From Syntrophaceae bacterium (lineage in GTDB: Bacteria; Desulfobacterota; Syntrophia; Syntrophales; Smithellaceae), in the NCBI GenBank assembly GCA_003141615.1, contig PLMV01000062.1, positions 1-35,079 of the forward strand: 35,079 bases of DNA, read 5' to 3'. Under the pieces are notes generated by a model. The model did not search any database and was not told the origin of the DNA. It saw only the letters and a list, made by a program, of their open reading frames with translations. The position numbers and the translations under genes were made by a program. Numbering within the stretch: position 1 is the stretch's first letter; each line of letters starts with the position of its first letter. Positions 17,787 through 35,078 of the stretch are shown here, in pieces.

Positions 17787-18902
17787 TCATCCAGTTTTGA
17801 TAAGAACTTTATAAAAGTAATTTTCAATTTTCTTCGGATCTTTCAAATCAATAAGCCGTAAATGCGCTTTTAAGACTTTCGGAGAGCTTCTTCGTCCGCC
17901 GTCTTTGCCATGAATTGTATCATCCCAATCAATAAGAGACAATTTGTTTCCTTGAAGGATCATATTGTTTGCCGTCCAGTCGTTATGAGCTTTATCAACA
18001 ATATTTTTAATTAACTGTTTTATTTGTATTCTTGAAGGGTGCATTCCATTGTACATTAAAAAAGTCATTAAATTAATGCCGGGTATCCATTTACTAATTT
18101 GCATATCATCAATATCCTGCAATTTTTTTAATATTGATTTATCTTTATAGTTGCTGGCAATTGTCAAGTGGGCAAGATCCTCTTTGGGCATAAGCCATTG
18201 CTTTCTGGCCAGATTTTTTTTCTCGGTTTCGAAAAGATAAATTCTGGACATTGCATTGGATGTATGGCGGGGGACTTCATCCAGAATTTTCGCGCCTCTG
18301 AAAATAAAATATTCTTCTATTGAATTTCTCAAAGCGTTTTGCTCTTCATTGACAATATCCTCCTGCGGCGGAGTTTCAATGATAATGTTGTCACCCATCG
18401 CTAAGATAACGTCGGCTACTTCTTTCCAGCGATCACCGAACCAGTGGATTATATTCAAAACCAGAACAACATCAAAACATTCACATTCGGCAAGCCTTTT
18501 GAGATCTTCTGGAATTATCTGTCTGTTTAGTAAAATGATATTATCGAGAGATGTATTGGCCCGGCAAAGGTCGAGCAATTGTCTGCCTATTTTCGGATAA
18601 GCAGGATTATCCCCTTCGATCATCACGCAAATACAATCGTAATTATGCGCGGCTCTGAACGTATAGTATCCCTGGCTCGCGCCGATATCCAGCATCGTGA
18701 AAGACCGCTGGTAACGGTCTAAGACTTTTTGGATTATTTTATAGCGCAATTCCGATTCCGAATGATTGCCGCTTGCTCTTTTGACAATTTTATTATTGAT
18801 AATTATATCTTGATACTGTTCATGGCCGTATTTGGTAATGTCGATAAACCGGGTGGCATTATTTTTAAATAAATTGAAATGTGATTTTAATTTAGAAAAC
18901 AT
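17787..18902 (-). CDS. Methyltransferase fused to a kinase-like C-terminal domain (WbdD-like architecture)
   Basis: A 371-residue protein. The N-terminal class I methyltransferase shows MLDIGASQGYYTFRAA (70-85), VMIEGDNPAY, CFDVVLVLNIIHWFGDRW (motif IV region, 142-158) and NIIIETPP. After residue ~240 the sequence resembles the C-lobe of an aminoglycoside/choline or protein kinase fold: WIPGINLMTFL (272-282), a catalytic-loop-like HNDWTANNMIL (306-316; HxDxxxxN) and a metal-site-like LIDWDDT (323-329). The kinase N-lobe is very short and its ATP lysine is not obvious. Methyltransferase-kinase fusions such as WbdD cap the end of O-antigen chains; this is a compact relative by analogy only. AAAGG precedes the start. 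Transcribed divergently from a glycosyltransferase. Confidence 0.72.
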   Translation of the reverse strand: MFSKLKSHFNLFKNNATRFIDITKYGHEQYQDIIINNKIVKRASGNHSESELRYKIIQKVLDRYQRSFTMLDIGASQGYYTFRAAHNYDCICVMIEGDNPAYPKIGRQLLDLCRANTSLDNIILLNRQIIPEDLKRLAECECFDVVLVLNIIHWFGDRWKEVADVILAMGDNIIIETPPQEDIVNEEQNALRNSIEEYFIFRGAKILDEVPRHTSNAMSRIYLFETEKKNLARKQWLMPKEDLAHLTIASNYKDKSILKKLQDIDDMQISKWIPGINLMTFLMYNGMHPSRIQIKQLIKNIVDKAHNDWTANNMILQGNKLSLIDWDDTIHGKDGGRRSSPKVLKAHLRLIDLKDPKKIENYFYKVLIKTG

Positions 18903-18979
18903 TTAAAACCTTTATAAAATTATTGGTTACAAGATAAAATAAAAATAATTAAGAATCAAGCATAAAATTATTTTGCGAA

Positions 18980-19163: not shown

Positions 19164-20033
19164 ATGAATGTAGATATCATTGTAACGACATATAAGCGAT
19201 ACGACATTTTGCAAGAGACTTTGAAGAGTGTGGCAAATCAGAGTTATCCGCATTGGAAATGCTGGATTGCCGAAGACGGCGAATCGAAAGAGACTTATGA
19301 AGCCGTAAAACCTTTTCTGCAGGATAAACGTTTTGCCTATCTGCCGGGAACCCATATGGGCTTTCCCGCTGTTTCACGAAATCGCGGCATTCGTCAGGGG
19401 ACTGCTCCATATGTTGCGTCGCTGGATGATGATGATCTTTGGCTGCCCGGGAAGCTGGAATGTCAGGTGGCTTTTTTAGAAAGCCATCCCGATTGTGTAT
19501 TGCTGGGGTGCAACTCCTTTTTATGGGAAGGAACAGGGGACTGGAATAAATCACCATTATATTTTAAAGAAAATATGCTGGGGAAGATAGATTATAACAA
19601 GTTACTGCGCCAAAACTGTATCGTCCATTCCTCAGTGATGTTTCGAAGAACCGCTGTGGAAAAAGCAGGATTATACAGTGAAAGGCTTAACCCGCCTATA
19701 GGCGAGGACTATGAATTGTGGCTGCGTATCGGCGCTCTCGGTGAAATCTGGAATTTGGCTGAACCGCTCATAATTTTCCGGAAAACACCCCTGGTATATT
19801 ATTCAAATCTGGACCGTCGTGATAAGTATAAAGCATCCGCAAACATTTTTAAGTCTGTATTAAATGGTGTTGGAAATATACCAAGTCCCCTTTCTTATCC
19901 GGGGAATGCTCATCTTGCTGCTGCATGCATGCGGGAAAGAGACTTCTATCTCGCGGGACCCCGGTTTCTGGGACGACTTAGACATGAAATGCAATCAGAG
20001 ATAAAACAGTTTTTTAACTTTAAAAAGACATAG
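19164..20033 (+). CDS. Glycosyltransferase, family 2
   Basis: A 289-residue cytoplasmic GT-A enzyme. VDIIVTTYKRYDILQETLKSVANQSYPHW is the nucleotide-sugar-binding start, ASLDDDDLWLPGKL (about 86-99) carries the DxD metal site, VMFRRTAVEKAGLYSE and GEDYELWLRIGALG (ED catalytic-base region) complete the GT2 pattern. No ribosome binding site is visible; the leader is very AT-rich. It begins a two-gene unit with the next reading frame four bases downstream. The sugar added cannot be predicted. It probably extends LPS core or O-chain. Confidence 0.88.
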   Translation: MNVDIIVTTYKRYDILQETLKSVANQSYPHWKCWIAEDGESKETYEAVKPFLQDKRFAYLPGTHMGFPAVSRNRGIRQGTAPYVASLDDDDLWLPGKLECQVAFLESHPDCVLLGCNSFLWEGTGDWNKSPLYFKENMLGKIDYNKLLRQNCIVHSSVMFRRTAVEKAGLYSERLNPPIGEDYELWLRIGALGEIWNLAEPLIIFRKTPLVYYSNLDRRDKYKASANIFKSVLNGVGNIPSPLSYPGNAHLAAACMRERDFYLAGPRFLGRLRHEMQSEIKQFFNFKKT

Positions 20034-20037
20034 AATC

Positions 20038-21000
20038 ATGAATAAGTTCATCCATTCAAGCATTAACTTTTTACTGAAACGATTTGGCCTCATCCTGCAA
20101 AAAAGCGAACAGGAATGGGAGAGGGACGCGTTCGCGAAACTTTATGAATCACGCATAACACATGTGGCGGGGTCCAGCGTTCATCCTGTGGAAGGTATAG
20201 TTTTTTCAAAGGACAGGGCTTTGCAGCTTCACGCGCTTTTGTCTTCTTACCTGGAAAAAGTAGTTTCACCAGTACCGCTTCATATCCTGTATCACACCTC
20301 AACGCCGGCGCATCAGAGGGCATACGAGGAAGTCATGGAAATATTTTCAGATAAATTTTCGTTTATTAAACAATCTTCGAATAATTCATTCCGGGATGAT
20401 CTTATAAAATTATTAGATTCCGTGCCGGCCCCAAAAGTTTTTTTTCTTGTGGATGATGTGCTTTTTATCGATAGTTTTGATGTTAGTGATTTTGCAGGAT
20501 TCGATACAGATAAAATAGTTCCCTCGTTGCGAATGGGGTTAAACCTGAAAAAATGCTATACCGTTCAGAGAGAACAACCATTACCGGAATTAATTTCCTG
20601 TCCCGGCAGCGATGAGGACAAAATATTTTGGAAATGGAATCAGGGCGTATATGACTGGTCTTATCCGTTGTCGGTTGATGGGCATTTTTTTTCCACACAA
20701 GAAATTATTGCCATGACTAAGTTAATCCATTTCTCCGCTCCCAACACTTACGAAGACCAGTTGCAGAAGTTTCGCCGGTTTTTTCTGTTTCGTAAGGGGG
20801 TAGGTTATAAGAAATCAAAAATTGTTAATATCCCTTGTAATAAGGTTCAAAAAGAAAACAAAAATATCTGCGGGAACACTCATCAGGATTTTTTGTTAGA
20901 GCAATGGATGAAGGGATATCAGATGGATTACCGAAGCTTATATGGTTTTTCCAACACCAGTGCGCATCAGGAAATTCCCTTTGAATTTATTAAACGCTAA
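20038..21000 (+). CDS. Uncharacterised protein, GT-A-like glycosyltransferase candidate
   Basis: 320 residues, family not recognised with confidence. GIVFSKDRALQLHALLSSYLE (from about 53) resembles the first strand and helix of GT-A folds; VFFLVDDVLFID (134-145) has two aspartates where a DxD would be; the DEDKIFWKWNQGVYDWSYPLSVDGHFF segment (about 200-225) and NTHQDFLLEQWMKG near the end could be acceptor or catalytic parts. There is no membrane segment or signal peptide. It starts four bases after the upstream GT2 stop, so the two are translationally linked, which supports a polysaccharide role. The 3' end faces the GT4 gene without a visible terminator. Confidence 0.6.
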   Translation: MNKFIHSSINFLLKRFGLILQKSEQEWERDAFAKLYESRITHVAGSSVHPVEGIVFSKDRALQLHALLSSYLEKVVSPVPLHILYHTSTPAHQRAYEEVMEIFSDKFSFIKQSSNNSFRDDLIKLLDSVPAPKVFFLVDDVLFIDSFDVSDFAGFDTDKIVPSLRMGLNLKKCYTVQREQPLPELISCPGSDEDKIFWKWNQGVYDWSYPLSVDGHFFSTQEIIAMTKLIHFSAPNTYEDQLQKFRRFFLFRKGVGYKKSKIVNIPCNKVQKENKNICGNTHQDFLLEQWMKGYQMDYRSLYGFSNTSAHQEIPFEFIKR

Positions 21001-21080
21001 CAAATAGCGCTTAAATCAAACAGAGAGTACCTCCGGATAAAAATCAACGGTTGGCACGGCACGAATGAATTGAGTCAGAG

Positions 21081-22244
21081 TCACCGTGTTGCCACCTCGT
21101 CAAGCACTCTCATCATCTCCCTGTGATTTCTTTCGGCAGAATATTCCTGGCCGGTACGGGAAGCTTCTTCAGACATTCTTTGACGCTTTTCATTATCCAT
21201 CAGTAAATTCATCTTATCCGCGAGATCGGAAGGATCAGGCGGATGGGAAAGTATATATCCATTCTTCCCGTCAGCTATGATGCCGGAAGCTCCGTTGGAT
21301 ATGGTTGTGATGGAGGGGATACCGCTTGCCATGGCCTCAATGACCACAAGGGAACAGGCATCGTAGTATGTGGGAAGCACGAAGACATCACTGTTTGCAT
21401 AAAACTCGTCAATAGATTTAACCCGTCCCGCGAAGATGAAAGTATCTTGGAGACCAAGACGATCTATAAGTTTTACAAGTGAACGATATGGCGATCCGCC
21501 GGCAACAATAACCTTGAAGTTTTTATTTCCGATTCCCTTTAATTTTGCGGAAGCCTCAACGAGGGGTTCAATACCCTTTTTTTTCAAGTCATAGGACACG
21601 AACAGAAAAACGATATCATTTTTGCTAATACCCCATTGATCCCTTAAATGTCCTCTCATCCGTTGCCGCAATGAAATGTTGTACCGTTTAGTATCGACAC
21701 CATTATATATGATCTTTATTTCATCCGGGTTTGTGTGAAAAAACGATCCCATGTCTTTTTTAATCATATGTGCAATCGCGACAATCCTGGGCCTCGGATT
21801 GAGCCGAAAGGGAGCCGCTTCTATCCACGCTCTTGCCCATTGCTTAATTGATAACAAAATGATGATACGCTTCGCAATGCGTCGCAAGACATTATTTTCC
21901 GCATAAACCTTTCTGGCGGTCGAAAGCTGGTGAACCCCGCCATGACTTTGATAGACGTTCATGTAGATCGTATTGCCAAAACCCATCACAACGTCATAAT
22001 GCTGTTTTTCCGTCATTTTTTTGTGCTTCCAGGCAAATAATAGCATTTTGATCCAGGACGGAAGAAACCTCGGTATATGTATCTCATGGAAATGAGCTTC
22101 TTTCGGCTCGCCGTCCCACGATTCGCCAAAAAAATGTACTTCCCATCCATTCTCTATAAGTGTGGTGGCCAGAGAGACAGCGTATGACTCCGCTCCTCCG
22201 GCGTAACGGCTGAATTTCTCCAAAGCAAACGCGATCTTTTTCAT
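21081..22244 (-). CDS. Glycosyltransferase, family 4 (WaaG-like)
   Basis: A GT-B enzyme of 387 residues when started at the ATG at 22244, where AAGGA lies eight bases upstream; the frame extends further to 22310 but without such a site. It begins MKKIAFALEKFSRYAGGAESY, the GGxE donor/acceptor loop of GT4. IYNGVDTKRYN, VSYDLKKKGIEPLVEA, FAGRVKSIDEFYANSDVFVLPTYYDACSLVVIEAMASGIPSITT follow, the last including the donor-binding ExxxSGxP region. The opening resembles WaaG-type LPS core hexosyltransferases. Encoded against its neighbours on both sides. Confidence 0.88.
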   Translation of the reverse strand: MKKIAFALEKFSRYAGGAESYAVSLATTLIENGWEVHFFGESWDGEPKEAHFHEIHIPRFLPSWIKMLLFAWKHKKMTEKQHYDVVMGFGNTIYMNVYQSHGGVHQLSTARKVYAENNVLRRIAKRIIILLSIKQWARAWIEAAPFRLNPRPRIVAIAHMIKKDMGSFFHTNPDEIKIIYNGVDTKRYNISLRQRMRGHLRDQWGISKNDIVFLFVSYDLKKKGIEPLVEASAKLKGIGNKNFKVIVAGGSPYRSLVKLIDRLGLQDTFIFAGRVKSIDEFYANSDVFVLPTYYDACSLVVIEAMASGIPSITTISNGASGIIADGKNGYILSHPPDPSDLADKMNLLMDNEKRQRMSEEASRTGQEYSAERNHREMMRVLDEVATR

Positions 22245-22394
22245 GACGGAATTCCTTAATCTACTGTTTTCAGGGAAAATATCTCTAACATATAAAGTCG
22301 AAAAAATCATGTTTTAATCAATGACACTTGCTGAGACGTCTCTTGTAAAATCAAAAAGTATATTATAGAATAAATCAGGAAATGGATGTGAATT

Positions 22395-23156
22395 ATGAAC
22401 AGATATTACAATTTATTCAAGACTTTCAAAAACTGGCGGACATATCTTGCTTATAAATACGGGCTTGCAGGGACGGAGCCGCTGGTATTTGAGACGCGCA
22501 GTGGCGTGATTGTGGAAGTTCCTCTCAGGCTTCTCCATACTTTTAAAGAAATTTTTATGGATGAATGTTACCTTGCCGGTCTGGAACGTCCCATTCTCTC
22601 CGGCGCGACTGTGATTGATATTGGAGCCAATGCAGGTTATTTTACCTTGTTTGCCGTTTCATGTTTTGCCGATGCCCGGGTATTTTCTTTTGAACCGGTG
22701 CCGGTCAATTATGCTCAATTGGAACGCCACCGCAATCTGAACAGTTCCAAGCCGATAAAATGTTTTCCGAAAGCCGTCGCCGGACAAGCAGGAGAGATCA
22801 GCCTGTCATTTGATTCCAGCGATTCTTTTACCACCAGCGCTACAATTTTTAAACAAACTGATCAGCAGACAGAGTCCATCAAAGTTCCCTGTCTCACACT
22901 TTCGCAGGTATTTGATGAAAACAGTATTAAAAAATGCGACCTTTTGAAAATGGATTGTGAAGGAGCAGAATATGATATTCTATATAATTGCCCCCCGGAT
23001 TATTTGCAGCGCATAGATCAGATTGCCATGGAAGTCCATAACGGCGAAAAAGAAAACCAGAATATTGAAGCTCTGGAAGCTTTTCTCCGGAAGCAGGGAT
23101 TTATCACCCGCCGGAAACCCGTTGGTATGCTGTGGGCCTGGCGCAGATCAAAATAA
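22395..23156 (+). CDS. FkbM family methyltransferase
   Basis: 253 residues. VIDIGANAGYFTLFAVSCF (about 74-92) is the SAM loop, VFSFEPVPVNYAQLERH follows with the FkbM EP motif, and the diagnostic LLKMDCEGAEYDIL lies at about 193-206, followed by IAMEVHNGEKENQNIEALE. FkbM enzymes are typically O-methyltransferases, often acting on sugars in polysaccharide clusters. The ribosome binding site is weak (AGGAAATGG). It is a single gene between two minus-strand genes; the O-antigen-ligase-like gene ends 20 bases away in the opposite sense. Confidence 0.88.
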   Translation: MNRYYNLFKTFKNWRTYLAYKYGLAGTEPLVFETRSGVIVEVPLRLLHTFKEIFMDECYLAGLERPILSGATVIDIGANAGYFTLFAVSCFADARVFSFEPVPVNYAQLERHRNLNSSKPIKCFPKAVAGQAGEISLSFDSSDSFTTSATIFKQTDQQTESIKVPCLTLSQVFDENSIKKCDLLKMDCEGAEYDILYNCPPDYLQRIDQIAMEVHNGEKENQNIEALEAFLRKQGFITRRKPVGMLWAWRRSK

Positions 23157-23176
23157 ACAATTATTTCAGAAAGCAT

Positions 23177-24454
23177 TTATGGAGAGGAGATTGTTCCTTT
23201 AGTTTTTTCTTGCCAGGCAAGATTCCACAAAATAGTTATCATTGCCAGCATTGTGTAAAAAATTATTGCTCTTGGTCCAAACATGGCGTCGGCAAATAAT
23301 GCTGGAAGCAAGAAAGATGTAATGCTTGCAAAAAGATAGATTGCCAATAGCTTATAATGTTCATTTTTTGTAAGCTGGAGTGTTCTCCATAGCATCCATA
23401 GAGAAGTGATTAATATATATAAAAATAAGGCAAGACCGACAACTCCGGTGCGAACGGCAATATCAAGTATTATATTATGAGGAGCAGCGACAATTTCGCC
23501 ATTTTGTTGATATTCCGGCGGTAATTGTTTGTTCAGCCTTTCTAAATCAAGGACATTTTTATTGCCATAAATTTCCATGCCGAATCCTATACCGGTAACT
23601 GGATGATCCTTTATTATTTCCAGCGTAAGACGGTTTATTTTAATTCTAACATCTTTAATAAAGCCTTCATTTTTTATTCTGTCGCTCATGCCTGGCATAA
23701 GAAAAATCAGCAGTGCCGCTAGAATAACAAAAATTAAATTCCTTTTATTGGCAAAACATAAAATAATAAATGAAGCACCCAGACCAATTAATGATCCTCT
23801 GGACTGGGTAAGTAAAGTTGCTGCCGTTGTTATTAGAAAACAGGTAATAAATAATATTTTATAAATTCCGGTTTTATTTTTGTGAAACAGATGTAGCGCT
23901 AAAATGGAGGCAAATGTTGTTGTAAAACCAATTAAGTCAGTTTGCATTGCTCCTGTGAAGGTGGGATCTCCTAGTCTTGCGGAAACGGGAAATCCTTCGA
24001 TAAAGTAGTATTGATTAATAGCGCCTACAGAAAAAATTGTTGCGCCGGCAATAACAATCACAGAGAGTATTTCAAGCATCTTTTGTGAATTGAAATAATT
24101 GACTAATAAATAGAAAATAATCAGATATTCTAATAAATGGCCGCGTAAATCGTGGAGAGTGTTTTTAAAATCAAGCGTAAAGAACAAGCCGAAAACTGCC
24201 CAAATAAAAAATAATACAAAAGGTAAAGTCAGCGGTGAATGTAAGGTAAAGGCCGTTTTTTTAAAAACAAGAAGCAAGAGTAAAGCAGAGACAGAAAGAT
24301 AAAAACAAAACTCATTCACGGCGGAGACAGGCAAGGGTTTTGCAAGCAGGTAAATACCCATAAAAACCGGAATCGAAAAATTCAATATCCTGAATATTTT
24401 TTCTGTTTGAGAACTACTTGTTTTTGAAACAATATCAACAGTAGGTTTGAACAT
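23177..24454 (-). CDS. O-antigen ligase-type membrane protein (Wzy_C family, WaaL candidate)
   Basis: 425 residues with about eleven to twelve hydrophobic segments. The Wzy_C features are TQSRGSLIGLGASFIILCF (arginine in the periplasmic-loop region) and, after a large loop, APHNIILDIAVRTGVVGLALF with the conserved HN pair. WaaL ligases and Wzy polymerases share this fold. This one lies among core-type glycosyltransferases, while a second Wzy_C-type protein (30018-31340) is next to wzx, so this is more likely the ligase joining O-chain to lipid A-core. That division is inference. Inner membrane. Confidence 0.82.
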   Translation of the reverse strand: MFKPTVDIVSKTSSSQTEKIFRILNFSIPVFMGIYLLAKPLPVSAVNEFCFYLSVSALLLLLVFKKTAFTLHSPLTLPFVLFFIWAVFGLFFTLDFKNTLHDLRGHLLEYLIIFYLLVNYFNSQKMLEILSVIVIAGATIFSVGAINQYYFIEGFPVSARLGDPTFTGAMQTDLIGFTTTFASILALHLFHKNKTGIYKILFITCFLITTAATLLTQSRGSLIGLGASFIILCFANKRNLIFVILAALLIFLMPGMSDRIKNEGFIKDVRIKINRLTLEIIKDHPVTGIGFGMEIYGNKNVLDLERLNKQLPPEYQQNGEIVAAPHNIILDIAVRTGVVGLALFLYILITSLWMLWRTLQLTKNEHYKLLAIYLFASITSFLLPALFADAMFGPRAIIFYTMLAMITILWNLAWQEKTKGTISSP

Positions 24455-24642
24455 GCCTATTTTTCCTAAACGATCTTGATGCTCTTGGTATTTTCTTGTT
24501 TTATGTTTAAGATGGATTCAAGTTTTTTTTATTTGTACATTTACAAGTGTGTGCTTATGATATAAGCGTTAAATAGTCAAATAAATTATAGATTACTACC
24601 TGAAGAAATGATAAAATAAACATATTTTAAAAGGAGAAGCTT

Positions 24643-25521
24643 TTGGAAAAAGTTCCTCTCGCGGTAGCCATAATAACAAAGAATGAAGAAGAAAATATTC
24701 GATCTTGCCTGCAGAGCCTTTCTTTTGCCGGTCAAATAGTCATTGTCGATTCGGGCAGCACCGATAAGACACTGGAAATTGCCGCTGAATTTGATTGCGA
24801 GATTTACTCCGAAGAGTGGCGTGGTTTCGGTCCGCAGAAACAATTGGCGATTGAAAAGTGCCGCCAGCCCTGGATATTAGTGCTTGATGCCGACGAACGT
24901 ATTCCTCCCGACACGGCGGATATTATAAAAAAAATTGTAACTGATTCTAATGTTAAGGAAGCGGGATTCAGCTTTCCCCGCAAGAATTATTTTCAAGGGC
25001 GATGGATCAAGCATGCCGGCTGGTGGCCGGATCGAATTATCCGCTTATTCCGCAAAGAAGCAGGCCGGATGACTACGGCAATCGTCCACGAATCTGTGGA
25101 AGTTCAGGGGATGGTCGGGGCTTTGGATGCTGTTATTGATCATTATACGGAGAGCCGGTTGGGCAAAATCATTCAAAAAATTGATAAATATTCAACGCTG
25201 GGCGCCGAAGCCGCCTTCCGGGAAGGAAAGAAATCTTCAACAGGCGGTGCCTTTATGCGCGCTTTTTTCACTTTTGTTCAGGATTATTTTTTCCGTCTGG
25301 GGATTCTTGACGGTATGCCGGGCTTGACACTGGCTGTTACGGATTCGGTCAATAAATTTTTCAAATACGCGAAGTTAAGTGAACTTGTAAAAATAAACCG
25401 TAGCGGTGGAGCAACTCCGGCAGGAGCCGGAGGCTCCTCTCCAAAATACGACATCCCGCGGATTGCAGAACGCATTCAATCCCCGGCGGGAGAAGAGGAT
25501 GTTCTGCGGCGGGGTAAATGA
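24643..25521 (+). CDS. Glycosyltransferase, family 2 (WaaE/KdtX-like LPS core type)
   Basis: 292 residues, starting at TTG with AAGGAG (24631-24636) six bases before it; no ATG fits. VAIITKNEEENIRSCLQSL, VIVDSGSTDKTLEIA, WILVLDADERIPPD (DAD metal site) and RKNYFQGRWIKHAGWWPDRIIRLF are the pattern of WaaE/KdtX beta-glucosyltransferases of the LPS inner core. A TAIVHESVEVQG segment follows. The last ~40 residues (from about NRSGGATPAGAGGSSP) are low-complexity and lie over DNA with three tight palindromes (25397-25438); they look added to the family length. Four-base spacing to the next gene implies an operon. Confidence 0.88.
   Translation: MEKVPLAVAIITKNEEENIRSCLQSLSFAGQIVIVDSGSTDKTLEIAAEFDCEIYSEEWRGFGPQKQLAIEKCRQPWILVLDADERIPPDTADIIKKIVTDSNVKEAGFSFPRKNYFQGRWIKHAGWWPDRIIRLFRKEAGRMTTAIVHESVEVQGMVGALDAVIDHYTESRLGKIIQKIDKYSTLGAEAAFREGKKSSTGGAFMRAFFTFVQDYFFRLGILDGMPGLTLAVTDSVNKFFKYAKLSELVKINRSGGATPAGAGGSSPKYDIPRIAERIQSPAGEEDVLRRGK
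25397..25438. repeat. Cluster of three palindromes inside the 3' end of a glycosyltransferase gene
   Basis: ACCG-TAG-CGGT (25397-25407), GGAG-CAA-CTCC (25408-25418) and AGGAGCC-GGA-GGCTCCT (25422-25438) follow one another. The density equals that of the intergenic mosaic repeats, but this set is translated in frame. Confidence 0.5.
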
Positions 25522-25524
25522 TCA

Positions 25525-26481
25525 ATGAATGAGCGCTATGGTGAACATCCGGCTGATAGAATTGATATATCGGTAATTATTGTCACCTGGAACACAAAAG
25601 AACTTCTGAGAAACTGCCTGAACTCATTATCGAAGACTGTTCATAATCTTCTCTTTGAGGTTATTGTTGTTGATAACGCCTCATCCGATGGCTCTATCGC
25701 TATGCTGGAAAAAGACTTTCCCTCTGTAATCAGAATTGTCAATAAAGAAAATAAAGGATTCGGCGCCGCTAATAACCAGGCACTGGCAATAATGAAAGGC
25801 AAATACGCCCTTTTGTTGAATACTGATACCGTATTAACGCCCGAAGCGGTAAACAAATTATGGAATTTTTGTGAGGCAAATGACAAAGCCGCCATTGTGT
25901 GCGGGCAACTATTAAATGCCGATGGCAGTAAGCAGAACTCTATTGCCTCATTTCCCGGTTTGCTTACGCTTGCCGCCAACACTTCGCTTCTGGAATATTT
26001 ATTTCCCGGCCGGTATCCCAGTAAAAGATACAAACACACATCCCCGATTGAAGTCGATTCGGCGATCGGCGCCTGCATGATGATCAGGAAAAAAGCTTTG
26101 GATGAAGCGGGCGCTTTTGATGAACGCTACTTTTTCTTTTTTGAAGAAACTGATTTGGCTTACACAATGCGCCTGCAAGGATGGAAAATTTATCAGGTGC
26201 CGGATGCTTTTATCTATCATTTACAGGGACAAAGTGTTGGAAATAATATTAGTTCACGAATAGAGTTTTATCGTTCCCGATATCAATTCTTTAGAAAATG
26301 GCACGGCCCTCTTTATTGCTATTTAGCCAAAGGCATAATTTTTTTGCGGTTATTGGTTAACGGTGTTTCCAGCTTTATATTTGTTATCTTGACCTTAGGT
26401 CTGAACAAAAAGTTACGGCATAAATTGGCCATGTATTCTAAATTAATCTATTGGCATTTGTTAAAAAAATCACGGGTATGA
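25525..26481 (+). CDS. Glycosyltransferase, family 2 (rhamnosyltransferase-like)
   Basis: 318 residues. ISVIIVTWNTKELLRNCLNSL, FEVIVVDNASSDGSIAMLE, NKGFGAANNQALAIMKGKYALLLNTDTVLTPE (DTD metal site) and ACMMIRKKALDEAGAFDERYFFFFEETDLAYTMRLQGWKI are typical of the WbbL-type rhamnosyltransferase branch of GT2. A C-terminal hydrophobic stretch (about 272-298) suggests membrane attachment. The start overlaps the end of the previous gene region by spacing only four bases, with no independent ribosome site. The stop codon TGA lies within the left end of the repeat element 26477-26611. Sugar specificity is inferred. Confidence 0.88.
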   Translation: MNERYGEHPADRIDISVIIVTWNTKELLRNCLNSLSKTVHNLLFEVIVVDNASSDGSIAMLEKDFPSVIRIVNKENKGFGAANNQALAIMKGKYALLLNTDTVLTPEAVNKLWNFCEANDKAAIVCGQLLNADGSKQNSIASFPGLLTLAANTSLLEYLFPGRYPSKRYKHTSPIEVDSAIGACMMIRKKALDEAGAFDERYFFFFEETDLAYTMRLQGWKIYQVPDAFIYHLQGQSVGNNISSRIEFYRSRYQFFRKWHGPLYCYLAKGIIFLRLLVNGVSSFIFVILTLGLNKKLRHKLAMYSKLIYWHLLKKSRV

Positions 26482-26611
26482 AACCCAAAGCAAGCTTTGG
26501 GAACAATTTCCGCAGCAAGCTGCGGGGTATAATTTCACTTACGCTTCAAACTTCATCCCGACTCGTCGGGATTCGTTTTTAGCGAGTGTCATTAAATTGG
26601 AGTTTCACAAT
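26477..26611. repeat. Mosaic repeat element (family 1, short copy)
   Basis: Reverse-oriented relative of 16508-16804. The left end reads TATGAAACCCAAAGC and the right end ATTAAATTGGAGTTTCACA. Three perfect palindromes lie inside: CCCAAAGC/GCTTTGGG (26484-26501), CCGCAGC/GCTGCGG (26510-26525) and ATCCCGAC/GTCGGGAT (26555-26572). The connectors AATTTCACTTACGCTTCAAACTT match the long copy but the palindromes differ. It includes the upstream gene's stop codon. Confidence 0.65.
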
Positions 26612-26814
26612 GATTTCCGGCAAAATAAAAAGTAAGCGCACTAATCCATTGACAGCATGGCATGGTTTTAGTAATAATCAGCAGTTCCTTCCATAGGTTA
26701 TATTACTTTAGCTAATGTAACTGAGAGGGCGGAGCTGTAAGTGACGTATATCCGGTCATAGAAAAATATTCTGTTTAAATTAAAATACATAGAACTAGGG
26801 AGGCTAATAAATTG
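26612..26814. other. Leader of the ElyC-wzz-wzx operon
   Basis: About 200 bases without a gene or a clear repeat after the mosaic element. The last 50 bases are AT-rich and may hold the promoter, but no -35/-10 pair stands out. AGGGAGG (26797-26803) is the ribosome binding site of the next gene. Confidence 0.4.
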
Positions 26815-27567
26815 ATGGAAGAAGTTTATACTATTTTCAAGGGATTTCTTGACCCCGTTTTTATTGTGCTTGTTTTGCTCGTTATCTCTCTTTTTCTTTT
26901 CTTTCTTAGCTGCAAGAAAAAAAATGGCGCATTGATTTTGCTGCTGGCTATTGTTTTAATTTATGGCGCAAGCATCGCTCCCGTGGCCAATTACCTTTGC
27001 TACTATTTAGAAAAGGACTATATTAACAACCCGACTGCCGGAAATAAAAAAATTGATGCTATAGTCGTATTAGGTGGTGGCACGAAAGACATCAATGCCT
27101 TAAAAGATACTTTTAATACAGGGATGGAATCTCTCCGGCTGCTTCATGCTGTTGTGGTCTATAATAAAACCGGCGCAAAGTATTTTGTTTGTTCCGGCAA
27201 AGGATATGGTAAAGTATCAGAAGCGGAAGTAATGGCAAGATTGGCGGAAAAATTAGGAGTGCCCAAAGAAAGAATCAGAATCGAGCCCAATTCAAAAAAC
27301 ACCGGAGAAAATGCCGGCGAGGTGAATAAAATGTTCGTCAATAAGAATGTTAATATCGGTCTTGTCACTTCGGCTTTTCATATGAAGCGCAGCGAACGGG
27401 AATTTAAAAAATATTTTAATAATGTGCTGCCGCTGCCCGCTCATTATTTATATTCATCGCCAACGGGAAATCCTGTTATCAGGTATATGCCGCATTCAGA
27501 AGAACTTTATAAAACGTCTATTGCTTTCAAAGAAATTATTGCTCAATTATGGTACAGATTAAAATAA
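26815..27567 (+). CDS. ElyC/SanA/YdcF family protein (DUF218)
   Basis: 250 residues from the ATG at 26815 (a TTG one codon earlier is closer to the ideal distance from GGGAGG and may be used). Two N-terminal membrane segments (about 15-35 and 40-62) precede a periplasmic or cytoplasmic DUF218 domain: IDAIVVLGGGTKD (about 82-94), FVCSGKGYGKVSEAEVMARLAEKLGVP, IRIEPNSKNTGENAGEV and IGLVTSAFHMKRSEREFKK. Relatives (ElyC, SanA) affect envelope and lipid-carrier metabolism. Its place at the head of a wzz-wzx-wzy set suggests a role in undecaprenyl-linked assembly. The reaction is unknown. Confidence 0.85.
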   Translation: MEEVYTIFKGFLDPVFIVLVLLVISLFLFFLSCKKKNGALILLLAIVLIYGASIAPVANYLCYYLEKDYINNPTAGNKKIDAIVVLGGGTKDINALKDTFNTGMESLRLLHAVVVYNKTGAKYFVCSGKGYGKVSEAEVMARLAEKLGVPKERIRIEPNSKNTGENAGEVNKMFVNKNVNIGLVTSAFHMKRSEREFKKYFNNVLPLPAHYLYSSPTGNPVIRYMPHSEELYKTSIAFKEIIAQLWYRLK

Positions 27568-27632
27568 TTATAAAAATAAGTGAACTGTAAATAAAATATT
27601 TAATCAATATATTATTGAGGGGAGAATGATTC

Positions 27633-28427
27633 ATGGAACAGCAAAACAGGGAAAACAACGATGAGATTAATCTTTACGATTTATGGAAAGTAATTGCCAA
27701 AAGGAAAAAACTCATCATCGGGCTATTTATCGTTATTGTAGGATTAACAGCCATTGTCAGCTTTCTTATGCCTGATATTTACAGAGGGGAGGCCGGTCTC
27801 CTCGTTATCCTCAAATCTGAAGTAATAACCGCTAAAGAAATAACAGATTTAATCGGGAGAATTGATGATGAAAAACAATTAAGGATGGTGCCTAAATCAT
27901 ATTCTAATGTAACGCATATCAAGCTCAACGACATTAAGGATTCAAAAAATATAATTGCAGTGACAATTGATGCAAAGAAGATTGACGATATTCCCAAGGC
28001 TTTATCGGAGGTCGTAGGATATTTAAATAATATGGATGTTATAAAATCTACAGTTAGCCGGGACAAAGAAATGCTTCTTAAACAATCAGCAGAACTCTCA
28101 GATCTTATAAAATCCTCACCGGATTTATTAGCAACGTATCATAAATTGTTTAGTGCCGGAAAACTTTCTACGATGGGTTTTAACCCAATAGATGTTAATA
28201 AAAGTATAAGTAACATAAAAGTAGAATTGCTAGGAGTCGAGCAGCAGATTTCAAGATTAAACAATGGAGGTATAGAAATAGCAGCACAACCCTATATTTC
28301 CAGCCGCCCCGTTAGCCCCAAGATACTACGGAATGTTGTAGCCTCCGGTATTCTTAGCCTTTTATTAGGGGTCTTCCTTGCCATTTTCATCGAGTACATC
28401 GGAAATATCAAGAATAAGAAAAGCTAA
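27633..28427 (+). CDS. wzz: Polysaccharide chain-length regulator (Wzz)
   Basis: 264 residues, inner membrane. The N-terminus has INLYDLWKVIAKRKKLIIGLFIVIVGLTAIVSFLMPDIYRGEAGLLV, with a membrane segment at about 32-51 and the typical Wzz start. A periplasmic coiled region follows. The C-terminal PYISSRPVSPKILRNVVASGILSLLLGVFLAIFIEYI holds the proline-rich motif and second membrane segment (about 234-255). It has no tyrosine-kinase domain, so it is the LPS-type Wzz (PCP-1) rather than Wzc. GAGGGGAG precedes the ATG. It sets O-chain length with the polymerase encoded downstream. Confidence 0.9.
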   Translation: MEQQNRENNDEINLYDLWKVIAKRKKLIIGLFIVIVGLTAIVSFLMPDIYRGEAGLLVILKSEVITAKEITDLIGRIDDEKQLRMVPKSYSNVTHIKLNDIKDSKNIIAVTIDAKKIDDIPKALSEVVGYLNNMDVIKSTVSRDKEMLLKQSAELSDLIKSSPDLLATYHKLFSAGKLSTMGFNPIDVNKSISNIKVELLGVEQQISRLNNGGIEIAAQPYISSRPVSPKILRNVVASGILSLLLGVFLAIFIEYIGNIKNKKS

Positions 28428-28540
28428 CCAAACGACAATGCTTGACTGATTAAATGGTCACGCATTACGTCATCTTGAATCCATAATGGAATAGGAAAAG
28501 AAATAATATTGATTTCTTGACCAAATTGTTAAGAAAATAA

Positions 28541-29824
28541 ATGTTTAAATTAATTCAATTAACTGTCTTTTTTCAATCCTTTGGTTATCTGTTCCAATTT
28601 GTCGCATTTTTATTATTTGCAAAAATGCTTGGCGCAGAGAATCAGGGGATATTTACCGTTTTTGTAACTACCGGTCAAATAATCGCTCTTTTAATATCCT
28701 TTGGTTTACCAGGTGGAATAACTTATTTCGTTGGTAAAGATAGAAGTCTTTTTTTGCCTGTTGTTGCAAATTGTTGCAAGTTGGTTTTAGCTCTTCTACC
28801 CCTTTTGATTTTGGTTTTATATGTATTACCAATAGATAAATTATTTAGCGTATACTTAATCAGGGATTACGTGCCATATCTATTAATTTCAATTTTTTTC
28901 CTGACTTTTTCGAGTATTTTCCAAGTATCTATTCTCAGCCTGAAAAAGTATTTATATTACAACTTGTTTTCCTTTGGGGCCGGGCTTATCATATGTATCC
29001 TCGCTGTTCTTATTTGGTTCGCGCCTGTTGTTTATAATAAGTTGAATCTATCAATTATCGCGTACATTGTTTCATACGGGATAGTGTTCATTTATGGGGC
29101 CACCCTTGTCATCAATGAAACTATGGTTATAGGAAACAAGGGAGGTGTGCAATCTTTTTGGGAGCAGTTTAAAGTCGGATTTAGAGGTTTTATTTCAAGC
29201 ATAGCAGCATTATTACTCTTCCGGCTGGATATTTTTCTCGTTGCATATTTTCTGTCTCTAAAGGAAGTTGGTATCTACTCTATTGCCGTGTTGAGTGCGG
29301 AAGTGGTTACGAAAATACCTACGTGGTCCGCTGGTATTCTTATACCTATGGTTGCAAGCAATGAAATTGACCATGTAAAAAGGACTGTTTATCTTTTTTA
29401 CTCAGCAATTATTGTTGCTTTATTATCGGGTTTGCTTTTTTTATTAGTATTTCTTAATTTTTCCAACTTGATCTCAAATGTAATAGGGAAAGACTTTACG
29501 GGTGTTGAAACTTGCTTACTGCTTCTGTTGCCCCGGGTTATTATGCAAAGTGGTGTTGGAATCTTGGCGGCCAATTTGGCGGGTAAAGGATATCCGTGGT
29601 ATCATCCTGTAGGATGTACGTTCCCACTTATTATTATTATTTTATTAGATATTATATTGATTCCCAAGTGGGGTATTAATGGGGCTGCTCTAGGGAGTTC
29701 GTTAGCATATGTTAGTGCTTTAATAATTTTCTGGATTGGATTCGGTAAATACAATGAACTCACCGAAGATGTGAGTCTTAAAACATACATGGTTATGTTA
29801 CTCAACCATTTACCTGGACGCTAG
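28541..29824 (+). CDS. wzx: Polysaccharide flippase (Wzx-like, MATE/MVF fold)
   Basis: 427 residues with about twelve membrane helices spread over the whole length and no soluble domain. The opening FGYLFQFVAFLLFAKMLGAENQGIFTVFVTTGQIIALLISFGLPGGITYFVG is typical of polysaccharide-biosynthesis flippases, as is the second half with GKDFTGVETCLLLLLP and IPKWGINGAALGSSLAYV. It would flip undecaprenyl-linked repeat units across the inner membrane. No ribosome site is visible and the composition falls markedly in GC from here to about 32640, a sign of separate acquisition. Followed by a small broken gene and wzy. Confidence 0.88.
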   Translation: MFKLIQLTVFFQSFGYLFQFVAFLLFAKMLGAENQGIFTVFVTTGQIIALLISFGLPGGITYFVGKDRSLFLPVVANCCKLVLALLPLLILVLYVLPIDKLFSVYLIRDYVPYLLISIFFLTFSSIFQVSILSLKKYLYYNLFSFGAGLIICILAVLIWFAPVVYNKLNLSIIAYIVSYGIVFIYGATLVINETMVIGNKGGVQSFWEQFKVGFRGFISSIAALLLFRLDIFLVAYFLSLKEVGIYSIAVLSAEVVTKIPTWSAGILIPMVASNEIDHVKRTVYLFYSAIIVALLSGLLFLLVFLNFSNLISNVIGKDFTGVETCLLLLLPRVIMQSGVGILAANLAGKGYPWYHPVGCTFPLIIIILLDIILIPKWGINGAALGSSLAYVSALIIFWIGFGKYNELTEDVSLKTYMVMLLNHLPGR

Positions 29825-29866
29825 CTTAAATTCTAAATTTGGAGCTTGGTTGAGAAGGATTATGAT

Positions 29867-30049
29867 ATGAGCACGGTTGCAGCAACGAGAGAGATTATTT
29901 CGGAAGGGTTGCGACAAATAGGCCTTGAATATGGTGATGCCGTGTTGGTCCGTTTACAATGTTTGCGAATTAGCATGGTAGTACAATTGGCAACTTATGG
30001 AATAATCCGATTTAAACATGAGGAGAAAAGTCAAACTGGCTGCGAATAA
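29867..30049 (+). pseudogene. N-terminal remnant of an AAC(3)-type acyltransferase
   Basis: From the ATG at 29867, with AGAAGGA seven bases upstream, the frame reads MSTVAATREIISEGLRQIGL then EYGDAVLV. This resembles the start of the aminoglycoside 3-N-acetyltransferase superfamily (LxxLGxxxGDxVLVHSS). After VLV the similarity stops and the frame ends 27 residues later, overlapping the next gene. It looks like a decayed gene, whose relatives can acylate amino sugars in O-antigen clusters. The resemblance covers only ~25 residues, so the call is weak; it may also be a chance short frame. Confidence 0.35.
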
Positions 30050-31340
30050 TGCAAAGGTATCAATGTATTCTAATTCTTTAAATACAATCATCACATTCAT
30101 GTCAGTGATTGCTGTATTTTTCTTCTCATACATTCCCTTTTTATATATTTTTTCTATTATTGGCATAGAAAAGAATATAATTTTTATATTGTTAATATCC
30201 GCAATCTTAATTCTTGCTTTATTTAGTTTTACGGGGCAAATGCTTCGTGGGAAAATTCAATTCTATAAGCGCAATATTACGGCGCTATCTTTGTACCTGC
30301 TGTTCGCAATATATGCTTTAGTCAGTTTCTTTCTCATAGGAGAAAAATTAAACGATCTTTTTACAATAAGAACACTTGTTCTAATAAATCCGATATTTGT
30401 GCTATTAGCTCTGTTATGTCTGCAAAATAAAAATAATGTTATTAATTTATTGTATTTACTTTCATTTAGTTACTTCATTATATTGATCTGGTCCTTGATT
30501 CAAGGAAACATATCTTTAAGTTCAAATAATGAACAAAACATATTTATGAATATTGATAATGGTTTTTACCAAAATATAAATATGTACCTTGGTTTATTCG
30601 CGATCTGTAATTTAGGGCTTCTGTCATCCAATAATAAATTCATTTCTGTGATTTCCAAGATTCTAATACTATTATCAGTAATAGGTATGTTCATAATAGG
30701 TGGGCGCGGTTCTGTGGTTGCTTTGGTTGCTATTTTCTTAATATATTATATTAATATATTAAAGTCATTTACTTTCACTTTATCATTCATTCTCAAATCA
30801 ATTATTCTAATTATTATCGTAGTAGCATTGATGGCATTTTATTTTGCCGAGATTACTCAAATATTAAATGCCTCAATTACATGGCAACGATTCATGATGC
30901 TAACTAAAGAAGGTGATGAGTCATTAAGAATTTACCTTTTCTCGCATGCGCTTGAGCTATTTTTTAGCAATATCAAAACAATGATATTTGGTGCTGGAAT
31001 CAATAGTTTCTCTGTTTATATTGGTGTTAACGATTTACGAATGTTTCCTCATAATATATTACTAGAGCTTTTAGCAGAATATGGCACTGTCGGCACAATA
31101 TTATTTGCAATACCCGCTGGATATATCATAAGTATTCGAAATAAAATATTAGGCTCAACTTTTGGTGATTGTATCAATGAGCAAATTATATTTCTTATAT
31201 TTATCTATATATTAATCAATGATCTATTTAATGGCGCTTTAAGAACGTCATGGATGTTTATATTTTTTATGTTCTTATTGATTCCCAGTCGGAAAGACAT
31301 TGAATTATTTAACAAAACTAAATTCAGGGCATATTTATGA
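30018..31340 (+). CDS. O-antigen polymerase (Wzy-like, Wzy_C family)
   Basis: Up to 440 residues, inner membrane, with about eleven to twelve hydrophobic segments. IIGGRGSVVALVAIFLIYYI and, after a long loop, FPHNILLELLAEYGTVGTILFA are the arginine and HN features of Wzy_C proteins. Placement between wzx and a GT4, in a cluster with wzz, supports polymerase. The start is uncertain: ATG 30018 lacks a ribosome site, while ATG 30063 has AAAGG five bases upstream and begins just before the first membrane helix; the latter is attractive. Very AT-rich. The end overlaps the next start in ATGA. Confidence 0.83.
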   Translation: MRRKVKLAANNAKVSMYSNSLNTIITFMSVIAVFFFSYIPFLYIFSIIGIEKNIIFILLISAILILALFSFTGQMLRGKIQFYKRNITALSLYLLFAIYALVSFFLIGEKLNDLFTIRTLVLINPIFVLLALLCLQNKNNVINLLYLLSFSYFIILIWSLIQGNISLSSNNEQNIFMNIDNGFYQNINMYLGLFAICNLGLLSSNNKFISVISKILILLSVIGMFIIGGRGSVVALVAIFLIYYINILKSFTFTLSFILKSIILIIIVVALMAFYFAEITQILNASITWQRFMMLTKEGDESLRIYLFSHALELFFSNIKTMIFGAGINSFSVYIGVNDLRMFPHNILLELLAEYGTVGTILFAIPAGYIISIRNKILGSTFGDCINEQIIFLIFIYILINDLFNGALRTSWMFIFFMFLLIPSRKDIELFNKTKFRAYL

Positions 31341-32526: not shown

Positions 32527-32955
32527 ATGAATCAACTAACAGAAACTAAAATAATTACATTACCAAAATTTGAAGATACAAGAGGCAACCTTTCATTCAT
32601 TGAGGAAGAAAGACATATTCCATTTAAGATTGAACGCACTTACTGGATATATGATGTTCCCGGCGGCCAGATGCGTGGCGGCCATGCTTTTAAGGAGCAA
32701 AGGGAATTTATCATTGCCCTCTCCGGCAGTTTTGATGTCGTGGTTGACGACGGTACTCACAAACAATTGTTCTCTTTGAACCGCTCATATTACGGCCTTT
32801 ATATTCCCTGCGGTTTATGGAGACAGATGGAAAACTTTTCTACCAATTCCCTGGCCTTCGTGTTGAGTTCAACAAAGTTTGTAGAATCCGATTACATTCG
32901 CGATTATGAAAAGTTCTTAAAGTATAGAGAAGAATATGAAAAACAGCGTATATGA
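32527..32955 (+). CDS. FdtA/WxcM-like sugar 3,4-ketoisomerase family protein (HxH altered)
   Basis: 142-residue cupin of the FdtA family, which isomerises dTDP-6-deoxy-4-keto-hexoses to 3-keto forms. FEDTRGNLSFIEEERHIPFKIERTYWIYDVPGG leads to RGGHAFKEQREFIIALSGSFDVVVDDG. The usual HAHK(E/x)xxxQ site is HAFKEQREF here: the second histidine is Phe and the Gln is shifted, so catalysis may be lost or altered. The first ~40 codons are AT-rich, the rest normal, a composition break near 32650. Its end overlaps the next paralogue by 20 bases. It may act as partner of that protein. Confidence 0.82.
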   Translation: MNQLTETKIITLPKFEDTRGNLSFIEEERHIPFKIERTYWIYDVPGGQMRGGHAFKEQREFIIALSGSFDVVVDDGTHKQLFSLNRSYYGLYIPCGLWRQMENFSTNSLAFVLSSTKFVESDYIRDYEKFLKYREEYEKQRI

Positions 32956-33361
32956 CTGTGTCATTCTGCCATTAAGTAAAATACATAATAGAGCGGGTAA
33001 TATTACCATTGTTGAGGGGCAAAAGAATATTCCCTTTGATGTGCGACGCGTTTATTATCTTTATGACATTCCCGGCGGTGAGAACAGGGGCGGGCACGCC
33101 CATAAAGAGCTTCATCAGTTTATTGTTGCCGCCAGCGGCTCATTCAATGTATTGCTTGATGACGGACAGAATAAAAAGACCTTTACCCTCAACCGGCCCG
33201 ACTATGGCTTGATGGTTGTGCCTGGCATTTGGAGAGAATTGTTTGAGTTCTCGTCTGGTGCTATCTGTTTAGTGCTGGCTTCACATAAGTATGATAAAGA
33301 TGATTATATGCGTGACTATGATCAATTTATTATTTTTCGCGACAATATCAACAGTACATAA
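32936..33361 (+). CDS. fdtA: FdtA-like dTDP-sugar 3,4-ketoisomerase
   Basis: 141-residue cupin with the intact family site RGGHAHKELHQFIVAASGSFNVLLDDG, preceded by VYYLYDIPGGEN. It would convert dTDP-4-keto-6-deoxy-glucose to a 3-keto isomer, en route to sugars such as Fuc3NAc or Qui3NAc. The aminotransferase and acetyltransferase that normally follow are not in this window. It overlaps the upstream paralogue by 20 bases, so it is made from the same message. The two are similar along their whole length, evidently a duplication. Confidence 0.88.
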   Translation: MKNSVYDCVILPLSKIHNRAGNITIVEGQKNIPFDVRRVYYLYDIPGGENRGGHAHKELHQFIVAASGSFNVLLDDGQNKKTFTLNRPDYGLMVVPGIWRELFEFSSGAICLVLASHKYDKDDYMRDYDQFIIFRDNINST

Positions 33362-34736: not shown

Positions 34737-35078
34737 TTACGCCGTCTTCAGTATTCTTGAAGCCCTAAAGAGATTAAAAGCCATCTGCCGGAAGAGCGCA
34801 TCAAGAGCATTTTTAATCAACTTTGGAAACCTCGCCCGATATGCCTTGTTGTATAAATGGCTTAATCCGAAATACTGTTCAACGATATACCGGACTTTAG
34901 AAATAGCTTTGTTACGTTCTGTTTCATATTCCGTAAGCTCAGTGCCTGTCGTTGCTTTTCTCATGATGCCGTCTGCGATTTTATTCAGGGCGAGAAAATC
35001 TCGATTAGGCTTTCCAAAATACCCTTTATCCGCATAAACTTTTTTAATAGGTTCTTTCGTATGACAACTACCAGCGAC
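34737..35078 (-). CDS. IS5-type transposase, C-terminal part, cut by window edge
   Basis: The minus-strand frame is open from the window edge to the stop at 34737 (113 residues). It reads GSCHTKEPIKKVYADKGYFG, then NRDFLALNKIADGIMRKAT, KAISKVRYIVEQYFGLSHLY and FRQMAFNLFRAS. VYADKGY holds a DDE aspartate and the RYIVEQYFG segment the final glutamate, the pattern of IS5-group transposases. The ATG at 34964 is internal. The N-terminal domain lies outside. It marks the right-hand boundary of the polysaccharide region. Confidence 0.85.
   Translation of the reverse strand, partial: VAGSCHTKEPIKKVYADKGYFGKPNRDFLALNKIADGIMRKATTGTELTEYETERNKAISKVRYIVEQYFGLSHLYNKAYRARFPKLIKNALDALFRQMAFNLFRASRILKTA

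What the first reader, a model, noticed from the sequence alone, without database searches (positions are those of the whole stretch)
17787..18902. Compact methyltransferase-kinase fusion in an LPS region
A methyltransferase domain (SAM loop at 71-81) is joined to a segment with HNDWTANN (306-313) and IDWDD (324-328), the catalytic-loop and metal-site pattern of APH-type kinases. WbdD, the known O-antigen chain terminator, has the same order of domains (plus a coiled coil) in about 700 residues; this is half the size with an almost absent N-lobe. It may be a minimal chain-capping enzyme or a pseudokinase that only binds ligand. The latter is possible because no clear ATP lysine is seen.
Basis: partly seen in the sequence, partly recalled or inferred. 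Interest (0 to 1): 0.6.

Follow-up and report, generated by a model that had tools for sequence, protein, structure and literature searches.

The report
Compact WbdD-like kinase-methyltransferase shared with phages
This bacterial gene encodes a small two-part enzyme that probably adds a phosphate to a surface sugar and then a methyl group to that phosphate; its only wider relatives found are in uncultured phages, often beside sugar-transfer genes, and its kinase half lacks parts that kinases normally have.

Summary
The gene (minus strand, 371 aa) is a SAM methyltransferase (~28-228) joined to an APH/WbdD-type kinase C-lobe (~246-371). Iterative searching of IMG/VR found over 20 distinct full-length relatives (27-38% identity) in virus contigs. 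With this 27-row family, a PDB profile search puts WbdD first (E 5e-20), AlphaFold gives pLDDT 85, and WbdD is the top structural match. Kinase D308, N313 and D325 are invariant in 27/27, so a dead kinase is unlikely. The N-lobe is three strands, with no alphaC helix and no conserved Glu; K255 is basic in 27/27. Most phage members keep WbdD's methyl-phosphate site and several lie beside glycosyltransferases. The same methyltransferase also occurs fused to an unrelated riboflavin-kinase fold, or beside a separate kinase gene, so a phosphate is its likely acceptor. The window's clade (four Syntrophales genomes) has altered that site. A WbdD-style chain-terminator role is not supported: no coiled coil, no Wzt_C in the genome, a Wzx/Wzy-type cluster. 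Best reading: a compact glycan kinase/phosphate-methyltransferase that decorates or caps a surface glycan. Neither activity has been tested.

The parts
17787..18902 (-). whole gene, 371 aa, methyltransferase-kinase fusion
18909..18913 (-). AAAGG, possible ribosome-binding site 6 nt before the ATG
   Evidence: by eye
18219..18821 (-). methyltransferase domain, residues 28-228, WbdD type
18666..18692 (-). SAM-binding loop, residues 71-79
   Evidence: G74 27/27
18744..18746 (-). R53, equivalent of WbdD R36 (sulphate/phosphate pocket)
   Evidence: 27/27
18444..18446 (-). H153, equivalent of WbdD H132
   Evidence: 27/27
18264..18269 (-). R212-H213; H213 = WbdD H197; R212 is present exactly in the 7 rows that lack the R203 equivalent
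17790..18167 (-). compact kinase domain, residues 246-371
18138..18140 (-). K255, basic in 27/27, candidate nucleotide-binding residue
18063..18089 (-). hinge signature W272-x-x-G-I-N-L-x-T280
17964..17987 (-). catalytic loop HNDWTANN, residues 306-313
17919..17933 (-). metal site IDWDD, residues 324-328
   Evidence: D325 27/27, D328 26/27
19164..31340 (.). neighbouring surface-glycan genes: GT2, GT4, FkbM methyltransferase, two Wzy_C proteins, Wzz, Wzx

Best explanation
A compact bifunctional glycan-modifying enzyme that works like the catalytic core of WbdD without its ruler. The reduced C-terminal kinase moves a phosphate from a nucleotide to a hydroxyl of a sugar (D308 as base, N313 and D325 as metal ligands; K255 and the GINL hinge probably hold the nucleotide). 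The N-terminal domain then methylates that phosphate with SAM (Y30, R53, H153 and H213 line the pocket, R212 perhaps standing in for WbdD R203). The product would be a methyl-phosphate on a surface glycan, as a decoration or end cap rather than a length-setting terminator. The family is found mainly in tailed-phage contigs, where it likely modifies virion or host glycans; the Syntrophales clade, including this gene, probably descends from a phage gene and is now chromosomal and under purifying selection. Shown here: homology, fold, residue conservation, gene neighbourhoods. Inferred: both activities, their order, the sugar acceptor and the direction of transfer.
For: WbdD first in PDB profile search, E 5e-20, with a second stretch over HDDVRPWN..LIDF; hhalign E 5.7e-22; model pLDDT 85.2, pTM 0.88; WbdD Z 18.1 against at most 13.8 for other methyltransferases; Foldseek's first four hits are WbdD entries with alignments of 365-392 columns. 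WbdD Y16, R36, H132, D351, N356, D369 conserved in 27/27 and H197 in 26/27 (roles from PMC3482155). The same methyltransferase is paired with other phosphotransferases: a separate kinase gene in mycobacteriophages of two genera and a CTP-dependent riboflavin-kinase fold in four viral proteins. Glycosyltransferases and sugar epimerases lie near phage members and one member is fused to an O-heptosyltransferase. dN/dS of the kinase half 0.19-0.30 between close copies.
Against: No biochemistry. The window's clade has lost WbdD H133 (Trp), R203, R31, C33 and W355. No alphaC helix and no conserved Glu: WbdD E274, a Mg ligand, has no counterpart. Three bacterial relatives are not beside glycan genes. 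The acceptor is unknown.
Confidence: 0.55

Rival explanations
1. Active methyltransferase with a pseudokinase-like C-terminal domain: the C-lobe only binds a glycan or nucleotide and positions the substrate, and the methyl group goes to a sugar hydroxyl.
For: No alphaC helix, no conserved Glu, no classical ATP lysine; the window's clade has changed WbdD's H133 and R203.
Against: D308, N313, D325 invariant in 27/27 and D328 in 26/27; replacement of this domain by a riboflavin-kinase fold in related proteins fits a need for phosphoryl transfer; purifying selection on the kinase half.
Confidence: 0.2
2. A small-molecule enzyme: an APH-like kinase plus methyltransferase that modifies a metabolite, nucleotide sugar or antibiotic rather than a glycan.
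For: Weak APH and choline-kinase matches; isolated gene positions in L007, L008 and L009; a WbdD-like fold does not fix the acceptor.
Against: Glycosyltransferase neighbours in several phages, fusion to an O-heptosyltransferase, methyltransferase-glycosyltransferase fusion in phage LittleE (phrog_22332).
Confidence: 0.13
3. A true WbdD-type chain terminator that sets O-antigen length for an ABC exporter.
For: WbdD is the closest solved relative; the window gene borders an O-antigen-type cluster.
Against: No coiled coil (the ORF ends at residue 371); no Wzt_C in the genome; Wzx/Wzy/Wzz genes in the cluster; relatives outside LPS loci.
Confidence: 0.05

Closest known systems
WbdD of E. coli O9a (PDB 4AZS/4AZW; PMC3482155)
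   Same: Methyltransferase then kinase; Y16, R36, H132, H197 and kinase D351, N356, D369 conserved; best hit by profile and fold.
   Different: 371 instead of 708 residues; no coiled coil; N-lobe about half as long, no alphaC; H133, R203, R31, C33 and W355 changed in the window's clade; no ABC exporter of the Wzt_C kind in the genome.
ORF6-N of Klebsiella pneumoniae O7 (PMC11231755)
   Same: Methyltransferase plus an APH-like kinase not recognisable by sequence that installs methyl-phosphate on rhamnose.
   Different: 223-residue kinase domain, coiled coil and fused polymerase modules; its sequence was not compared here.
Kinase-methyltransferase-glycosyltransferase gene runs of mycobacteriophages (Thibault gp12-14, Tweety gp102-104, LittleE gp16-17)
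   Same: Homologous methyltransferase with a kinase gene next to it.
   Different: Two separate genes, kinase first; the kinase keeps a Lys and an alphaC-like Glu (read); no biochemistry known to me.
APH phosphotransferases (PF01636)
   Same: HxDxxxxN and ID motifs; all five Syntrophales copies hit APH weakly.
   Different: Below the curated cut-off; domain of 118-146 residues without alphaC.
WNG kinases of Toxoplasma (PMC6442604)
   Same: Precedent for an active kinase with a rebuilt N-lobe.
   Different: Lack the Gly-loop but keep alphaC Glu and VAIK Lys; no relation claimed.

Membership tests
WbdD chain terminators | WbdD-type methyltransferase domain | tested here: met
   PDB profile search E 5e-20, hhalign E 5.7e-22, VIA-align Z 18.1
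WbdD chain terminators | full methyl-phosphate site (Y16, H132, H133, R203 and R31/R36/H197 pocket) | tested here: not met
   window keeps Y16, R36, H132, H197 equivalents but has Trp for H133, Ser for R203, His for R31; R212 may compensate
WbdD chain terminators | kinase catalytic Asp, Asn and DFG-type Asp | tested here: met
   D308, N313, D325 in 27/27
WbdD chain terminators | full kinase N-lobe with alphaC Glu (E274) | tested here: not met
   three strands, no helix, no conserved acidic residue
WbdD chain terminators | C-terminal coiled-coil ruler | tested here: not met
   ORF ends at 371 after two short helices
WbdD chain terminators | ABC exporter with Wzt_C recognition module | tested here: not met
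   no PF14524 in the window's genome, about 90% complete
WbdD chain terminators | phosphorylation then methylation of the glycan end | not testable with these tools
   needs enzyme assay and NMR
APH phosphotransferase family (PF01636) | score above the Pfam gathering cut-off | tested here: not met
   12.1 bits against a 23.2 cut-off
APH phosphotransferase family (PF01636) | HxDxxxxN and following metal Asp | tested here: met
   H306, D308, N313, D325
Virus-borne compact MT-kinase family described here | YQ and Arg at the MT start, W-x-x-G-I-N-L-x-T hinge, HxDxxxxN, ID..D, about 300-380 aa in total | tested here: met

The most novel reading that the evidence does not exclude
A virus-borne family of glycan kinase/phosphate-methyltransferases whose active kinase domain is unusually small (118-146 residues, three-strand N-lobe, no alphaC helix, no Lys-Glu pair), so that phages cap their own or host glycans with methyl-phosphate, and Syntrophales bacteria have taken one such gene into their chromosomes.
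Probability: 0.4. Interest if true: 0.75.

Novelty: new variant of a known kind. Interest (0 to 1): 0.6.

Why it matters
Methyl-phosphate capping is known from O antigens exported by ABC transporters and made by large ruler-bearing enzymes. A small stand-alone version, spread in phages among glycosyltransferases, would extend that chemistry to phage glycans and to a Wzx/Wzy-type bacterium. A kinase without alphaC and its Glu would test how little of the N-lobe phosphoryl transfer needs. The same methyltransferase paired with two different kinase folds offers a natural test of what it methylates. No paper in the held library mentions WbdD together with phages and viruses, and no named phage record in the collection carries the fused form.

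Tried and rejected
Single-sequence searches: phage tblastn hit only the methyltransferase half, plasmids gave nothing, Pfam and NCBIfam only sub-threshold matches. The first AlphaFold run with five close copies failed (pLDDT 47) and its fold search was uninformative; it was replaced by the 27-row run. L010 from the genome scan is a chance match inside an RND transporter frame. K234 or K259 as ATP lysine: K234 aligned with the phage kinase lysine and K259 is invariant in Syntrophales, but neither is conserved in the wider family. The profile search of 395 genomes of the phylum gave only partial matches in the methyltransferase region outside Syntrophales; a search centred on another phylum failed because the handle was of the wrong kind, so other phyla were not searched with the wide profile.

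Full report
OBSERVATION. The ORF lies at 17787-18902 on the minus strand, with an ATG start and AAAGG 6 nt upstream, 371 aa. With one sequence the evidence is thin: Pfam gives Methyltransf_12 (E 0.019), choline kinase (0.035) and APH (0.16), all below cut-off.

FINDING RELATIVES. Close copies were found only in the window's own order: in the 155 genomes of the order, three further intact copies (61-63% identical), one degraded copy with several in-frame stops (69%) and one 39-residue fragment. Adding mycobacteriophage methyltransferases found by tblastn to the alignment let a degenerate-pattern scan of IMG/VR find 17 relatives that cover both domains, and a second round 31 loci that cover most of the protein, many on the same contigs. 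After removal of duplicates, alignment A8 holds 27 rows: 4 from Syntrophales and 23 viral. Several of the contigs carry terminase, portal, head-protease or tape-measure genes close by, so these at least are tailed phages.

THE METHYLTRANSFERASE. Profile A8 against all PDB sequences ranks WbdD first at E 5e-20; the next other protein has E 5e-4. hhalign to WbdD gives E 5.7e-22. The AlphaFold model made with A8 has pLDDT 85.2 and pTM 0.88. VIA-align gives WbdD Z 18.1 (rmsd 2.7, 197 residues), other methyltransferases at most 13.8. Foldseek ranks four WbdD entries first with alignments of 365-392 columns, which run into the kinase half; the high rmsd suggests a different orientation of the domains.

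ACTIVE SITES. Mapped on WbdD (residue roles from PMC3482155; mapping): Y16 27/27, R36 27/27, H132 27/27, H197 26/27, R31 22/27, C33 22/27, H133 21/27, R203 20/27; kinase D351, N356 and D369 27/27, W355 15/27. The window's clade deviates: R31 is His, C33 is Ser or Thr, H133 is Trp, W355 is Asn and R203 is missing. The seven rows without R203 (four Syntrophales, three viral) are exactly the seven with Arg at residue 212, next to the pocket histidine; the other twenty have Ser there. As the seven form one group in the tree (88/91) this may be a single event, but it suggests that the arginine moved rather than vanished (inference).

THE KINASE HALF. It is 118-146 residues long, with 42-51 residues before the hinge glycine, and is modelled with three strands and no alphaC before the hinge, then the usual order of C-lobe elements. 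No acidic position is conserved in the N-lobe; K255 is its only fully basic one. The hinge signature W-x-x-G-I-N-L-x-T is nearly invariant. Similarity to WbdD's kinase and to phage kinases exceeds 60 column shuffles each (44.5 against 23.0; 38.3 against 19.7). That all three catalytic residues are kept at 27-38% identity argues for activity. dN/dS of the kinase half between the close copies is 0.19-0.30 by NG86.

WHAT IT DOES. Three lines point to phosphate and then methyl on a glycan. First, most members keep the phosphate site of WbdD's methyltransferase. Second, the same methyltransferase is paired with other phosphotransferases: a separate kinase gene beside it in mycobacteriophages of two genera, followed by a glycosyltransferase, and in four viral proteins a CTP-dependent riboflavin-kinase fold in place of the compact kinase. 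Third, neighbours of phage members include glycosyltransferases of families 2, 8, 11 and 25 and sugar epimerases, and one member is fused to an O-heptosyltransferase. The acceptor sugar is unknown.

CONTEXT IN THE WINDOW. The gene is between folD and a GT2 gene at the edge of a cluster with GT4, an FkbM methyltransferase, two Wzy_C proteins, Wzz, Wzx and two FdtA-type proteins. That is a Wzx/Wzy layout; no Wzt_C was found in the genome. The relatives in L007, L008 and L009 are not in glycan clusters. Gene GC is lower than its surroundings (window 36.9 against 40-44%; L008 39.8 against 54.2%), which fits a transferred gene. The Syntrophales clade is one side of a branch (100/100) and groups with three viral sequences. 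The direction of transfer is inferred: the tree is unrooted and other phyla were not searched with the wide profile.

COMPARISON WITH THE KNOWN. It is not a WbdD in the strict sense: ruler, ABC exporter, alphaC and part of the methylation site fail. K. pneumoniae O7 shows that a methyltransferase-kinase with an unrecognisable APH-like kinase can install methyl-phosphate (PMC11231755), and WNG1 shows that a kinase can work with a rebuilt N-lobe (PMC6442604). No named phage or plasmid record in the collections holds the fused form.

VERDICT. Observation confirmed; interpretation partly supported. This is a new variant of the WbdD kind, mostly phage-borne, with an unusually small kinase domain. 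Both activities remain to be shown.

Noticed in passing
L044 (same contig as L021), L045, L052, L057: The same WbdD-type methyltransferase is fused to a CTP-dependent riboflavin-kinase fold (PF01982, E 1.7e-11 to 5.6e-16) instead of the compact APH-like kinase.
   Followed up: partly
L095:2-2383: A viral protein with the end of an MT-kinase, a second methyltransferase and an autotransporter-type O-heptosyltransferase (TIGR04414, E 1.6e-85) in one frame.
   Followed up: partly
L006:8001-9101 (same gene as in L002): Degraded copy with several in-frame stops in a Syntrophaceae genome, beside the same upstream genes as in the window; an intact second copy (L007) exists in that genome.
   Followed up: partly
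L022:2998-4224 (phage LittleE gp17): The methyltransferase is fused to a glycosyltransferase in one phage lineage, next to a separate kinase gene.
   Followed up: no
window 20038-21000: 320-aa protein between glycosyltransferase genes with no Pfam or NCBIfam match.
   Followed up: no
window 32527-33361: Two overlapping FdtA-type (PF05523) genes in tandem, suggesting a dTDP-3-amino-3,6-dideoxyhexose in the glycan (the sugar is inferred).
   Followed up: no
window 34737-35078: Minus-strand frame, open at the window edge, that looks by eye like the end of an IS5-type transposase.
   Followed up: no
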